Assembly: GCF_018623035.1 (NCBI RefSeq)
Contig: NZ_CP076023.1
Coordinates: 3,534,001 to 3,598,000 of the forward strand
Origin: Cellulomonas dongxiuzhuiae
GTDB lineage: Bacteria; Actinomycetota; Actinomycetes; Actinomycetales; Cellulomonadaceae
Direction: 5' to 3'
DNA length: 64,000 bases
In this document: positions 10,073 through 64,000 of the stretch, piece by piece
Position numbering within the stretch: the first letter of the stretch is position 1
Layout: each line of letters starts with the position of its first letter
The notes under the pieces: model-generated
Database searches by the model: none
Seen by the model: the letters and a program-made list of their open reading frames with translations, nothing else
Told to the model about the DNA's origin: nothing
Program-made: the position numbers and the translations under genes

Positions 10073-11026
10073 TCAGGCCGGGTCGCCGCCGCGCAGCCGG
10101 TCGAGCCACGCACGCGCCTCGACGAAGTCCGCGTCCGACGTGCCCACGTGGACCAGCGGCGCGACCGCGTCGGCACGCGGGTAGGACCCGAGGAACCGCA
10201 CGTACGGGCACCGCCGGTGCAGGCCCATGAGCACCTCGCCCATGCGCTCGTCGGTCACGTGCCCCTCGGCGTCGATGGAGAACGAGTAGCGGCCCAGCGC
10301 GTCGCCGATGGGCCGCGACTCGATGCGCGAGAGGTTCACGCCGCGCACGGCGAACTGCTCGAGCATCGCGAGCAGCGCGCCTGCCTCGTTGTCCGGCAGG
10401 TGCACCACGAGCGTCGTCTTGTCGGCGCCCGTCGGCGCGGGCACGGGGCCGGGCGGTCCGACGACGACGAACCGCGTGAGCGCCGACGGGTTGTCCGCCA
10501 CGTGCTCGGCCACGGGTGCCAGCCCGTACGTCCCGACCGCCGCCGGGGGCACGAGCGCGGCGTCGAACGCGAGCGCGCGCACCGCCGCCGGGTCGCCCGC
10601 CGCTTGGGCGAGCAGCGCCGCCGGTGCCGTGTTGCTCGTCGCCGGGACGTGCACCGCGTGCGGCAGGTGCGCCGCGAGCCACCGGCGGCACTGCACCCAC
10701 GCGTGCGGGTGCGCCGCGATGCGCCGGACGTCCGCGAGCCGCACGCCCGCCGGGGCGACGAGCGTGAACTGCACCGGCACGAGCACCTCGCGCACGATGA
10801 CGAGCGGCGACCCCGCGGCCAACGAGTCGAGCGTGGCGGTCACGCCGCCCTCGGCGGTCGACTCGATCGCGACGACCGCACGGTCGGCGTCGCCCGAGCG
10901 GACCGCGGCGATCGCGGAGCCCACGTCCGTCTGCGGCAGGTACACGGCCTCGTCGGGTGCCGCGACCTGCCGCAGCGCCTCCTCCGTGAAGGTGCCCGCA
11001 GGCCCGAGGTACGCGTAGCGCAGCAC
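10073..11026 (-). CDS. pheA: Prephenate dehydratase
   Basis: The 317-residue protein is monofunctional: no chorismate mutase domain precedes it. The PDT domain opens with RYAYLGPAGTFTEEAL, carries the catalytic segment ALTRFVVVG (the TRF motif), and is followed by an ACT domain with VNLSRIESRP, the phenylalanine-binding ESRP signature. It converts prephenate to phenylpyruvate in phenylalanine synthesis and should be feedback-controlled by phenylalanine. The GTG start at 11026 gives the standard N-terminus. It is divergent from the next gene, with 130 bases between. Confidence 0.95.
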   Translation of the reverse strand: MLRYAYLGPAGTFTEEALRQVAAPDEAVYLPQTDVGSAIAAVRSGDADRAVVAIESTAEGGVTATLDSLAAGSPLVIVREVLVPVQFTLVAPAGVRLADVRRIAAHPHAWVQCRRWLAAHLPHAVHVPATSNTAPAALLAQAAGDPAAVRALAFDAALVPPAAVGTYGLAPVAEHVADNPSALTRFVVVGPPGPVPAPTGADKTTLVVHLPDNEAGALLAMLEQFAVRGVNLSRIESRPIGDALGRYSFSIDAEGHVTDERMGEVLMGLHRRCPYVRFLGSYPRADAVAPLVHVGTSDADFVEARAWLDRLRGGDPA

Positions 11027-60659: not shown

Positions 60660-61336
60660 CGGAGCCGAACGGGACCACCGGTGCCACCACCCCGGTCCGG
60701 GTGCTGCTGGCCGACGACCACGCGGCGATCCGCGCCGGGCTGCGGCTCATGCTCGAGCAGTCGGGCCGGGTCGAGGTCGTCGGGGAGGCCGCCGACGGTG
60801 ACGTGGCCGTGCGGCAGGCGCGCGCGCTGCGCCCCGACGTCGTGCTCATGGACGTGCGGATGCCGGGGACGGACGGGATCGCCGCGACGGCCGCGATCGT
60901 CGGTGAGCGGCTAACCGAGGTCGTGGCGCTGACGACGTTCGACCTCGACGAGTACGTGCTCGGGATGGTGCGCGCGGGGGCCGCCGGGTTCCTGCTCAAG
61001 ACCGTCGGCGCGGGCGAGCTGGTCGACGCCGTGTGCCGGGTGGCCGCCGGTGAGGGCGTGCTGGCGCCCGAGGTCACGCGCCGCCTGCTCGACGCGGTCG
61101 CGGCCCACGTCCCCGCCGACGCGCCCGCCCCGGCCGACGACCGACTCGCGAGCCTGACCGCGCGCGAGCGCGACGTCCTCGATGCACTCGGTGACGGCTT
61201 GTCGAACGCCGACATCGCGGCGCGGCTCGTGGTGTCGGAGACGACGGTGAAGTCGCACGTCAGCCACCTGCTGGCCAAGCTGGGCGTGCGGACGCGGCTG
61301 CAGGCGGGGGTGCTGGCGCGCGACCTGCGCGGCTGA
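60656..61336 (+). CDS. NarL/FixJ-family response regulator
   Basis: The 226-residue protein has a receiver domain with the acidic pair LLADDHAAIRAG, phosphoacceptor Asp66 (VVLMDVRMPG) and LLKTVGAG. A LuxR-type helix-turn-helix follows (LTARERDVLDALGDG from 167, VSETTVKSHVSHLLAKLGV). It starts at TTG, which overlaps the kinase stop as TTGA; AGGAG lies ten bases upstream. It probably controls its own operon or the divergent membrane protein. Confidence 0.93.
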   Translation: MTEPNGTTGATTPVRVLLADDHAAIRAGLRLMLEQSGRVEVVGEAADGDVAVRQARALRPDVVLMDVRMPGTDGIAATAAIVGERLTEVVALTTFDLDEYVLGMVRAGAAGFLLKTVGAGELVDAVCRVAAGEGVLAPEVTRRLLDAVAAHVPADAPAPADDRLASLTARERDVLDALGDGLSNADIAARLVVSETTVKSHVSHLLAKLGVRTRLQAGVLARDLRG

Positions 61337-61486
61337 CCGGTCGTCGCAGATGGTCAGTCGTACTGCGGTGGGCCACTTGATCTCGATCGGCGTGGGCAGT
61401 CCGCGTCAGGATCGCCGTCGGTACGAAGGCACAGGCTCGTGCCGCGGCGTCCTGCACGACCTCCCCTGGAACCACTTCCCTGGACA

Positions 61487-61906
61487 TCACAGCTGGTCCG
61501 ACGCTGAGCGCCGAGCCTCTAGGGCGTTCTTCGCTGCATCTCGGACGACCCAGGATTGATCTTCTGCTAGGCGGCGCACGACGCCGAGGGGAGCACGTTT
61601 ATTGCTGGCAACTCGCGCCCGGACGGTCGCGTCCTCGTCGCGCGCCAGTCGCTCCAGAACTCGTGAGGGCGCGCTGCGCCGCCTTGCGACCGTCGCTCTG
61701 ACCGTAGGATCCGAGTCATCGGCGAGCATCTCCAGCACGACAGCAGGAACCGTCTTGTTGTGAGCGACCCAACGCCTCAGGTCAGGGTACTTTCCAATGA
61801 TCTCCAACCAGACTTCTAGCGGAGCATTCTCGCGGGACGCTCGATCTTGGTCGTGCAGATTCTCGCTCGTGCGCATTTCGAGAAACTGCGTCGCAGACTC
61901 AATCAA
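61487..61906 (-). CDS. Putative immunity protein of four LRV/HEAT-like helical repeats
   Basis: The 139-residue protein has an N-terminal acidic helix and then four ~23-residue repeats of the pattern P-x2-V-L-x2-L-A-x-D-x-D-x2-V-R-x2-V-A (residues about 28-130), an alpha-solenoid. The TTG at 61906 overlaps the TGA of the Rhs toxin gene (TTGA), with TGGAGG eight bases upstream, which sets this start. Lower G+C than the chromosome around it. Immediate coupling to a toxin tip argues that it binds and neutralises that toxin. Some solenoid proteins have other roles, so this is inference. Confidence 0.75.
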   Translation of the reverse strand: MIESATQFLEMRTSENLHDQDRASRENAPLEVWLEIIGKYPDLRRWVAHNKTVPAVVLEMLADDSDPTVRATVARRRSAPSRVLERLARDEDATVRARVASNKRAPLGVVRRLAEDQSWVVRDAAKNALEARRSASDQL

Positions 61907-63408
61907 TTGATCAACCTCCAGGGGATAAAGGCTCCGACGGCACTCTTGTGCTTGCCACGGATGAAGTCCCCGTACTGATCCGCGCCGGCCATCCACTCGA
62001 GACCTTTAGGGGTTTCTTGGTATACTTTCCAAGCCGACCCTCCATGCCCAGCCGTGTCACGCGACCACCATAAATCATCGGACTTACTCTTCCACAAAGT
62101 TCCGAACGGACCTCTTCGGGTGGCCGCCGTCCCTTCTGTGGTGATGTTCCACAAGCCGCGCACTTTGCAGGTGTTGTGCACGAGAGCGGACTCGTCGCCA
62201 ACCCCGACGAAGTAGGTGTGGATCCCCTCGACGGTGAGGTTGTACGCCAAGGCCTGCCGTGCGCTGCCGGGCGCGAGGCCGTAGACCTCGAGCTCTTGCC
62301 CATCGGCGCTGAGAATCCGCTCGCCTTCACTGAGTTCGTCGGCAGCCTCGAACCGCTGGTCTGTGACCGACCAGAAGGGATGATCCTCGGTCGTGGTAAG
62401 TGCCGCCCCGCCCTCAACCGTGAGGTCGACCAGTGTGTCCTGGTGCATCCACGTGTGAGTGACCTCGCGAGCACCGGCCTCGCCGGTCTCGGGGTCCATC
62501 GCCTGAACCATCTCTCCAACGCGGACCTCGTCGATTGGCTTTCGACTGCCGTCGGCCATCACGACCAGGGTCGCACCGTCAAAAGAGCACACATCGTCAA
62601 CCACGTTCGCGGCTCGGCCCGCTTGAACGCCACCTCGGAACGCCCACCCTCCGAGTGCGCCGAGAGCGCATCCCGACGCGGCCGCCCCTCCGACGGTCCC
62701 CCAGTTGACCTTCCGCCCCGACAACCGCTCACCCAGGTACGCCGCCCCACCATCGAACGCCGCCCCCGCCACACACCCGATCAGCATCGGGTTGTGCCCC
62801 GTCGGATCCGTGAACACCGTCGGCGCATTCGCCCCGTACGCGTACGGGTTCGACCCACCGGCGAACCCGATCGGGTCCTCCGAGATGAACCGCCCCAGAC
62901 CCGCGTCGTAGTACCGCGCCCGATGGAACGTCAGACCCGCACCATCGAACTGCCGACCCGTGAACCCCAGATCCGCACCATGGACATCACCGCTGACCGA
63001 GGCCACCCCGAACGGGTCGAACGACCACCGCGCCGACACCGACCCGTCCGCACCACCCAGACCCACCGGCGAACCCAGCAGATCCGTCAGCACCGCGTCC
63101 GTCCCCCCGGCATGCGTCCGGGCGAACCACTGATCCATCCCCCCGGACAACAACCCCGCGACGGCCTGCCCCTGACCATCGAGCTCGACCGCCGGATTGG
63201 CCCCCACGTCCACGAAGCCCGAGGCCGAGTCCCCCACGCCCCGAGACGAACGACCACCCGTCGGGGAGTACCCGAAGGACAGATCCCCACCCGCGACGTC
63301 CACCGACACCAGACGTCCCAGCTCGTCCCACACGAACGACCGCGACCCGTCCGAGAGCAGGTTCCCGTCCGCGTCGTACTCCAACGCCTCACCGGCGGCC
63401 TCGACCAA
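61903..63408 (-). CDS. N-terminally truncated Rhs core with Hint domain and C-terminal toxin tip
   Basis: The 501-residue frame opens inside the YD-repeat region (LEYDADGNLLSDGSRSFVWD) and runs through the Rhs core end (RYYDAGLGRFISEDPIGFAG ... NPYAYGANAPTVFTDPTG, to residue 204). A glycine-rich segment comes next, then a Hint autoprotease domain (Cys274 in CSFDGATLVVMADG to VHN 410-412), then an 89-residue tip with WWSRDTAGHGGSAWKVY and FIPW near the end. The tip reads as a nuclease-like toxin but has no name I can assign. A stop lies 24-26 bases before the first possible TTG start, so most of the ~1500-residue Rhs shell is missing. Probably an orphan toxin module. Confidence 0.85.
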   Translation of the reverse strand: MVEAAGEALEYDADGNLLSDGSRSFVWDELGRLVSVDVAGGDLSFGYSPTGGRSSRGVGDSASGFVDVGANPAVELDGQGQAVAGLLSGGMDQWFARTHAGGTDAVLTDLLGSPVGLGGADGSVSARWSFDPFGVASVSGDVHGADLGFTGRQFDGAGLTFHRARYYDAGLGRFISEDPIGFAGGSNPYAYGANAPTVFTDPTGHNPMLIGCVAGAAFDGGAAYLGERLSGRKVNWGTVGGAAASGCALGALGGWAFRGGVQAGRAANVVDDVCSFDGATLVVMADGSRKPIDEVRVGEMVQAMDPETGEAGAREVTHTWMHQDTLVDLTVEGGAALTTTEDHPFWSVTDQRFEAADELSEGERILSADGQELEVYGLAPGSARQALAYNLTVEGIHTYFVGVGDESALVHNTCKVRGLWNITTEGTAATRRGPFGTLWKSKSDDLWWSRDTAGHGGSAWKVYQETPKGLEWMAGADQYGDFIRGKHKSAVGAFIPWRLIN

Positions 63409-63493
63409 CCGGTTCTGCGCGCCCAGGAGCGTCGCAAGGCCTCACGATCGGCGAGAACGCCGACGATGCAAGCGGTCGGGGACGTCGCCACCC

Positions 63494-63865
63494 CTAGACA
63501 CCGGTCGGGTGGAACTCCAGGTCACGTGCGTCGACGGCGACGACCGATCCCACGGCCAACCGCATCGGCGCACTCTGCTCGAGCTGGATCTGCATTGCTG
63601 CGCGCGCGACCTCGAGCACGATCACCCCATCGTCGAAGACACGGGCCACGGTGCCGCGAAGCATCCCGGGCGACACGGCTCGAACAGGGTCCAGGACGAG
63701 GTCTTCGAGTCGCCGCTCACCTGGCAGCTCGAGCTCCACGTCGAGGTTCTCGCCGACGGCGACCGGTCGCGGGCCCATCCAGAACCCTACAAGGCGACCG
63801 GCCTCCGTCTCGAGTTCTATGCGTCGGTGATGTGGGTCGGCGCTCGTCACAGCGATTGCACGCAC
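63494..63865 (-). CDS. Small hypothetical protein, possible immunity protein
   Basis: The 123-residue soluble protein appears beta-rich (alternating Val/Leu strands such as GVIVLEVARAAMQIQLE). The GTG at 63865 shares its first base with the TAG of the upstream frame (TAGTG), and GGGAG lies seven bases before it; a TTG two codons earlier is the alternative. No family recognised. Its place, coupled behind a truncated frame and ahead of an Rhs toxin module, fits an immunity gene for the upstream protein; this is a positional guess. Confidence 0.6.
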   Translation of the reverse strand: MRAIAVTSADPHHRRIELETEAGRLVGFWMGPRPVAVGENLDVELELPGERRLEDLVLDPVRAVSPGMLRGTVARVFDDGVIVLEVARAAMQIQLEQSAPMRLAVGSVVAVDARDLEFHPTGV

Positions 63866-64000
63866 TACCAAGCTCCCTTCGGGAACGGGACACGAACTGC
63901 AACATTATGCAGGTTCCAAACAGCAGCGATCTCATCGAACTCCCACGTCTCCTCGTGGAAATGGAACTTTGTGGGCGAGGATCCCGCCTCATGAGCACCG
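63865..64000 (-). CDS. C-terminal end of an unknown protein (cut by window edge)
   Basis: On the minus strand an open frame enters from the right edge and ends at TAG 63867-63865. Its last residues include KFHFHEETWEFDEIAAVW and VAVRVPFPKGAW. The residue mix is protein-like, and the TAGTG overlap with the next start supports coding. It lacks a start in the window and is of modest G+C. It may be the toxin tip of a longer Rhs protein, which cannot be tested here. Confidence 0.5.
   Translation of the reverse strand, partial: GAHEAGSSPTKFHFHEETWEFDEIAAVWNLHNVAVRVPFPKGAW

What the first reader, a model, noticed from the sequence alone, without database searches (positions are those of the whole stretch)
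61903..63408. Orphan Rhs-Hint toxin module with a truncated shell
The frame holds only the last part of an Rhs core, then a Hint domain ending in VHN, then an 89-residue tip. An in-frame stop precedes the first start, so it cannot build the Rhs cocoon. Orphan core-fragment/toxin/immunity cassettes stored behind a main rhs gene are known reservoirs for toxin swapping. G+C falls from the Rhs core toward the tip and immunity gene, suggesting the tip was acquired separately.
Basis: partly seen in the sequence, partly recalled or inferred. Interest (0 to 1): 0.72.

Follow-up and report, generated by a model that had tools for sequence, protein, structure and literature searches.

The report
Orphan Rhs toxin–immunity cassette pair
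A high-G+C bacterium carries two leftover ends of an Rhs antibacterial toxin gene, each followed by a small gene that probably protects against it, parked between two ordinary genes with no intact delivery gene beside them: a known kind of arrangement, here with a small toxin tip that the family libraries searched do not name.

Summary
In detail: window 61903-63408(-) is a 5'-truncated Rhs core, a Hint domain ending in VHN and an 89-residue tip; an LRV-repeat gene overlaps its stop by 4 nt. It is an orphan (dissociated) Rhs cassette, and just past the window edge lies a second one: core 94-95% identical with an in-frame stop, another tip, and a small gene where immunity would be. But no main rhs gene is here. 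The pair fills a 3.95-kb insertion at a place where, in 4 of 8 relatives compared, only 16-85 nt separate the flanking homologies. One relative has two fragments of the same core there, one with a different tip, one broken off; three have unrelated inserts. Core A shares at most 17 identical nt with the four other toxin loci compared in this genome. The tip is a widespread domain: 20 loci outside this genome, several at the ends of long Rhs frames, 13 with the same LRV gene next door. Pfam, NCBIfam, PHROGs and PADLOC gave no confident name (weak Ntox21 resemblance). Most likely a silent cassette whose immunity gene can be translated, without a compatible delivery gene in this genome. New member of a known kind; interest modest.

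The parts
62794..63421 (-). 5'-truncated Rhs core fragment of copy A (homology to copy B begins at about 63421; first start codon TTG at 63408)
   Evidence: TIGR03696 residues 131-205; 96.7% nt identity over 764 nt to copy B; frame table
62584..62793 (-). post-core linker shared by copies A and B and by one G079 copy; tips diverge near its end
   Evidence: translations
62173..62583 (-). Hint (pretoxin HINT) domain, ends VHN, predicted self-cleavage site
   Evidence: PF07591 60.4 bits
61903..62172 (-). 89-aa toxin tip A with stop codon; motif S-x-D-x-A-G-H-G-G-S-A-W-K, then G-K-H-K
   Evidence: alignment A2, 7 invariant columns in 17 sequences; AlphaFold2 beta model, mean pLDDT 84.7
61487..61906 (-). 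immunity gene A, LRV-repeat protein; start TTG 61906 overlaps toxin stop by 4 nt, GGAGGT 7 nt upstream
   Evidence: PF01816 48.7 bits, cut-off 21.6; homologous next gene in 13 of 20 tip loci; start and upstream sequence
63422..63493 (-). 72-nt spacer between the small gene of copy B and core fragment A
63494..63871 (-). 125-aa gene in the place of immunity gene B (by position only)
   Evidence: directly after tip B, with overlap; no Pfam, NCBIfam or PADLOC match
63865..64000 (-). 3' end of tip B; copy B continues right of the window (L014 7865-9286, genome 3597865-3599286) with a core fragment that carries an in-frame stop
61334..64000 (.). window part of the insertion (genome 3595334 to about 3599286, 3.95 kb, edges taken from relative G003) between a response-regulator gene and an LLM-type oxidoreductase gene

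Best explanation
Two dissociated Rhs toxin-immunity cassettes sit in an insertion between a response-regulator gene and an oxidoreductase gene. Shown: both have 5'-truncated cores of one type, the same linker and then different tips, and a related species has the same core type at the same place with a different tip. Inferred: the copies arose by repeated recombination at the shared core, each event leaving an older tip plus immunity gene behind. The delivery part is gone and no compatible rhs was found in this genome, so toxin A is not delivered. It probably lies silent (no upstream promoter found, no good ribosome site at its own starts), while its LRV immunity gene has its own strong ribosome site and could protect the cell. 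If a matching full-length rhs arrived by gene transfer, the core would let it pick up the Hint-tip-immunity unit. In such a fusion Hint would cut after VHN and free the tip, probably a small metal-independent RNase that uses the conserved Asp-His-Lys, and the LRV solenoid would block it.
For: Second copy at genome 3598231-3599013, 94% identical over residues 1-262 and 95% over 1-259, with a different tip. G079 has the same flanks and core pieces at 92-95% nt, one followed by a different tip. In 4 of 8 relatives the flanking homologies are only 16, 23, 58 and 85 nt apart; G003 and G078, two of these, are further from this genome in the flanking oxidoreductase (dS 0.191, 0.255) than G079 is (0.108), which fits a gain before this genome and G079 parted. 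Core A shares 190 identical nt with copy B, 14-17 nt with the four other loci compared. Tip A ends an annotated 1550-aa Rhs protein on Asticcacaulis plasmid pASTEX02 (52%) with an LRV gene next door (36.7% to ours); LRV gene in 13 of 20 outside loci. Nocardioides L054 has Hint 60% and tip 61% identical with no core match. Immunity A has GGAGGT 7 nt before its start; the toxin frame's own starts have GGTGA at best, apart from a GAGGT before a start inside the tip. The same pattern is described for enterobacterial rhs (PMC2935791, abstract and passages read).
Against: No expression data. No full-length parent of this core was found: in 80 further genomes of the genus the next best match by E-value after G079 is 38% identical, and in the order sample the only other match at E up to 1e-20 is 38%, so arrival of a matching rhs is hypothetical. 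Copy B is broken and both G079 copies are damaged, which fits plain decay as well. RNase activity rests on a motif and a fold model with no significant structural match. The conserved Asp, His and Lys are partly built into the search patterns that fetched most tips. dN/dS in the core (0.38 and 0.10, on 6 and 11 differences) is weak evidence and may date from before detachment.
Confidence: 0.62

Rival explanations
1. Plain relic: the cassettes are remnants of a lost rhs gene, decaying without any present use or exchange.
For: Copy B has a stop in its core; both cores are 5'-truncated; both G079 copies are damaged; no compatible rhs partner found in the genome.
Against: Hint, tip A and immunity gene A are uninterrupted, and the 4-nt overlap and a strong immunity ribosome site are kept; tips differ between two species at the same spot, which points to exchange at some time.
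Confidence: 0.25
2. Internally expressed toxin-antitoxin module: tip A is made from a start inside the core or Hint and acts in the producing cell, balanced by the LRV protein.
For: Orphan Rhs toxins of Salmonella are expressed from internal promoters and work so (PMC7043789, abstract and passages read); intact toxin and immunity genes with translational overlap.
Against: No promoter-like site on the minus strand in 61300-64000 (only 0.3 expected by chance, and the scan suits high-G+C bacteria poorly, so this says little); weak ribosome sites at in-frame starts.
Confidence: 0.11
3. Assembly or base-calling error hides an intact rhs gene.
For: One in-frame stop in copy B.
Against: Copy A is preceded by another gene, not by rhs; copy B runs up to the edge of the insertion and no further, and the rhs remnant of G079, another genome, ends at the same place.
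Confidence: 0.02

Closest known systems
Dissociated (displaced) Rhs tips of Enterobacteriaceae (Jackson et al. 2009, PMC2935791; abstract and passages read)
   Same: Core fragments of one type and variable length, each with a different C-terminus, lower G+C in tip than core, some copies with premature stops
   Different: There the fragments lie downstream of an intact rhs gene; here none is present and the spot is an insertion whose site is empty in 4 of 8 relatives compared
Orphan Rhs-CT/RhsI of Salmonella (PMC7043789; abstract and passages read)
   Same: Toxin end plus immunity gene without the delivery part
   Different: Salmonella keeps the full-length gene next door and shows internal expression; the first is absent here, the second untested
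Ntox21 / PF15526 toxins (PMC3482391; passages read)
   Same: [DS]xDxxxH then K motif, HINT and RHS context
   Different: Sub-threshold Pfam score, RxG[ST]/RxxD half not seen, LRV neighbour instead of Imm-Barstar/Imm41
Colicin E3-type ribosomal RNase (PDB 2b5u)
   Same: Predicted small beta domain; of the 50 PDB matches listed (120 found) it had the highest TM-score for the query, 0.39
   Different: Match not significant (E 2.6); PF09000 not among the Pfam matches of the 17 tips

Membership tests
Dissociated/orphan Rhs toxin-immunity cassette | 3' core fragment without start region, followed by variable tip and immunity gene | tested here: met
Dissociated/orphan Rhs toxin-immunity cassette | core nearly identical to another local copy with a different tip | tested here: met
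   94% over residues 1-262, 95% over 1-259; 190-nt exact match
Dissociated/orphan Rhs toxin-immunity cassette | lies downstream of an intact main rhs of the same core type | tested here: not met
   no such gene in this genome nor in the G079 island
Hint-released polymorphic toxin | PT-HINT directly before the tip with terminal His-Asn | tested here: met
   PF07591, VHN at 410-412; cleavage itself not tested
Toxin-immunity pair (tip A / LRV) | the two genes stay together in unrelated genomes | tested here: met
   13 of 20 outside loci; 7 of 20 lack an LRV neighbour, 3 of those (Bacillota) have another, mutually similar next gene. Protection not tested
Ntox21 (PF15526) | score over Pfam cut-off (25 bits) | tested here: not met
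   14.7 bits; at E<=0.1, 4 of 17 tips match, best E 0.0092
Ntox21 (PF15526) | K, [DS]xDxxxH, K, RxG[ST], RxxD residues | tested here: inconclusive
   first part present (SRDTAGH, K), second part not seen (definition); profile comparison with two Ntox21 domains E 0.25, probability 0.2% (shallow profile)
Colicin E3-type RNase (PF09000) | Pfam match or significant fold match | tested here: not met

The most novel reading that the evidence does not exclude
Tip A founds an unnamed antibacterial toxin family (small beta domain, conserved Asp-His-Lys and two further invariant lysines) spread over about six bacterial phyla, paired with an LRV-solenoid immunity protein in most loci and with a different immunity protein in Bacillota; and the insertion shows a cassette array that persists and changes tips between species at one chromosomal spot without any resident rhs gene of its type.
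Probability: 0.33. Interest if true: 0.45.

Novelty: new member of a known kind. Interest (0 to 1): 0.3.

Why it matters
It is one more case of Rhs tip displacement, in a non-enterobacterial genome, with empty sites and a sister species to order the events. Its less usual points are that the array exists without a compatible delivery gene, and that the tip with its LRV partner is widespread but not covered by the family libraries searched, so it could be annotated and tested as a toxin-immunity family.

Tried and rejected
Rejected: a full-length rhs to the right of the window (19 kb fetched; ORFs of the first 9 kb listed; genome-wide searches). Rejected: a frameshift joining copy A to an rhs directly upstream. 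Not filed as Ntox21 or colicin E3-like. Led nowhere: tip A in the other 395 genomes of a phylum sample (0 of 395), in phage records (no match), in viral contigs (5 pattern matches, none confirmed), PDB by sequence (best E 0.0067 to a salivary peptide, taken as chance), PDB and viral folds (none under E 0.001), PADLOC, PHROGs (0 of 17). NCBIfam gave a choice-of-anchor model in 3 of 17 tips, best E 0.019, and Pfam gave gp37_C in 2, Tudor_4 in 1 and PEPCK_GTP in 1 of 17, all weak and taken as chance. PF15526 and PF09000 searches gave 2 of 296 genomes each, too few for good profiles. Promoter scan uninformative. The 125-aa gene after tip B had no match in plasmids; tip B matched one Streptomyces plasmid at 60%, with no feature annotated under the match and a 'hypothetical protein' starting just after it; not followed further. 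Papers seen only as listings: those and 77 other than the three whose passages I read.

Rows dropped: from tip alignment A2 I left out L064 (cut short), L070 (odd C-terminus), L071 (divergent) and L052 (other collection), so it holds 16 of 20 outside tips plus the window's. LRV alignment A3 has the window gene and the 13 neighbours, one (L057) cut by its contig end. The window line is blank through a slip in my script; the ribosome-site claim for immunity A rests on the sequence printed. The genome scan looked for two short motifs, so tips without either are missed. The order scan scored at most 6 candidates in a genome.

Full report
What is there. On the minus strand, window 61903-63408 holds a 501-aa frame that begins at a TTG in the middle of an Rhs core (frame open from 63441). 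It has a weak RHS repeat (11-41), the Rhs-associated core end (131-205), a linker, a pretoxin Hint domain (282-412) ending VHN and an 89-residue tip. The next gene is an LRV-repeat protein. Comparison with relatives puts its start at TTG 61906, overlapping the toxin stop by 4 nt and preceded by GGAGGT 7 nt upstream. None of the toxin frame's own start codons has so good a site: the best before the tip is GGTGA, and one start inside the tip has GAGGT. G+C falls from 0.70 in the core to 0.57 in the tip, 0.61-0.62 in the immunity gene; the window mean is 0.735.

A second cassette. Just past the window's right end the genome has a second copy of the core (3598231-3599013), 94% identical over residues 1-262 (95% over 1-259), with one in-frame stop. 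After the shared linker it has no Hint and a different tip, followed by a 125-aa gene at 63494-63871, taken as its immunity gene by position only (no family match). The order on the minus strand is: core fragment B, tip B, small gene, 72-nt spacer, core fragment A, Hint, tip A, LRV gene. A and B differ at 6 sites in the 156 codons before B's stop and 11 in the 90 codons after it (dS 0.024 and 0.128), so the copies are most alike away from the tip joint. These are small numbers.

No main gene. Beyond copy B come an LLM-type oxidoreductase gene and an alpha-amylase/trehalose-synthase-like gene (names from reading the sequence, recalled). TIGR03696 finds five core ends in the genome: two in long rhs frames (2686 and 2083 aa), the two fragments here, and one fragment behind the 2083-aa frame. 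By DNA, core A shares 190 identical nt with copy B and 14-17 nt at most with the four other loci compared, which include both long rhs genes, so exchange with the resident rhs genes by homology is not expected. A search of 80 other genomes of the genus found this core at over 90% identity in one, G079; the next best by E-value was 38% identical, with short stretches up to 50%. An order sample of 396 genomes including this one gave one other match at E up to 1e-20, also 38%.

The place is an insertion. I compared the spot in the eight relatives whose oxidoreductase is at least 92% identical. In 4 of 8 (G003, G078, G068, G032) the homologies to the left and right flank are 16, 23, 58 and 85 nt apart: an empty site. 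In 3 of 8 (G059, G077, G017) an unrelated 1.0-2.5 kb insert lies there. In 1 of 8 (G079) there are two core fragments with pieces 92-95% identical in DNA to A and B: one runs through the shared linker into a different tip, the other breaks off inside the core, and several small ORFs lie around them. G000 and G079 also share about 50 nt inside the right edge of the insertion that the empty-site genomes lack. In the flanking oxidoreductase G079 is the nearest (dS 0.108), against 0.191 for G003, 0.193 for G059 and 0.255 for G078, so a gain in a common ancestor of G000 and G079 is the simplest reading (no species tree was built). The response regulator differs by dS 0.141 between G000 and G079; core stretches differ by 0.03-0.04 in one part and 0.16-0.21 near the tip joint, which suggests patchy recombination but rests on few sites.

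The tip is a widespread domain. tblastn found it on Asticcacaulis excentricus plasmid pASTEX02 (52%) at the end of an annotated 1550-aa Rhs protein with Hint (another annotated RHS gene lies just upstream of it), and a motif-based scan of the genome collection gave 19 more loci. By their titles these come from Actinomycetota, Pseudomonadota, Bacillota, Acidobacteriota, Planctomycetota and Chlamydiota (phylum names recalled). In 13 of these 20 loci the next gene is a homologue of the LRV protein (Pfam LRV at E up to 0.001 in 11 of 14 members of the alignment), in 7 of the 13 with a 4-nt overlap. The other 7 have no LRV neighbour; 3 of them, all Bacillota, have another next gene, mutually similar by eye. 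In Nocardioides L054 Hint and tip are 60% and 61% identical to ours while the core does not match, so Hint and tip can sit together on other shells.

What the tip may do. Seventeen tips share invariant D40, H44, K50, G69, K75, K77 and G81. The first three lie in the motifs used to fetch most of these tips, so their invariance is partly built in; the last four are not. The AlphaFold2 model is confident (mean pLDDT 84.7, pTM 0.74) and made of strands with one short helical turn. No PDB fold match is significant; of the 50 listed among 120, colicin E3 (2b5u) had the highest TM-score for the query, 0.39, at E 2.6. Pfam Ntox21 is hit below its cut-off (14.7 of 25 bits; 4 of 17 tips at E up to 0.1). 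The Ntox21 motif [DS]xDxxxH then K is present, its second half is not seen, and a shallow profile comparison is not significant. I infer a metal-independent RNase, possibly related to Ntox21, at perhaps 55%. It is not filed as a member.

How it likely works. By the displacement model of Jackson et al. (abstract and passages read), incoming core-tip DNA recombines with a resident core and pushes the old tip downstream. Zhang et al. (passages read) describe exchange with standalone cassettes that bring toxin and immunity together. The pair of cassettes, the shared core and linker, the changing tips and the foreign composition fit this. What does not fit the usual picture is the absence of a main gene. 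Either it was lost before G000 and G079 parted (neither has it, and both share the right edge) or only cassettes were inserted. In this genome the toxin is therefore undelivered, and as far as sequence shows it is silent while the immunity gene can be translated on its own. Internal expression as a toxin-antitoxin pair, known in Salmonella (abstract and passages read), is not excluded.

Verdict. This is a known kind of locus. The points worth keeping are the insertion with empty sites and a sister copy, and a widespread tip-LRV pair without a name in the libraries searched.

Noticed in passing
L016 2735-9467 (genome 3225234-3231966, minus): A classic arrangement elsewhere in the same genome: a 2064-aa rhs gene with Hint and tip, a small next gene, then a dissociated core fragment with an early stop (next gene and stop read by eye).
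   Followed up: partly
L017 5105-9265 (genome 1365104-1369264, plus): A 1386-aa ALF-repeat protein with PT-HINT and an Ntox24 tip; its Hint is 52-54% identical to the Hint of the finding.
   Followed up: partly
L018 around 10530-10890 (genome about 2218530-2218890, plus): A second long rhs frame (2686 aa) with a core end of another type.
   Followed up: no
L051 8197-11056: In G079 six small minus-strand ORFs lie at this spot, five between the two core fragments and one beyond the left one; perhaps further tips and immunity genes. One of six has a weak Pfam match (DUF7919).
   Followed up: partly
L104, L107, L108: The place between the response-regulator and oxidoreductase genes holds unrelated inserts in G059 and G077 (alike by eye, a large secreted-looking protein) and G017 (a FadR/GntR-like regulator by eye): a recurrent insertion spot.
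   Followed up: no
L062, L063, L065: In three Bacillota loci the same toxin tip is followed by a different next gene of about 214-236 aa, mutually similar by eye, instead of the LRV gene: possibly a second immunity type.
   Followed up: no
L054 5599-6692: Nocardioides turkmenicus carries Hint, tip and LRV gene like ours at the end of a frame of over 2000 aa whose core does not match.
   Followed up: partly
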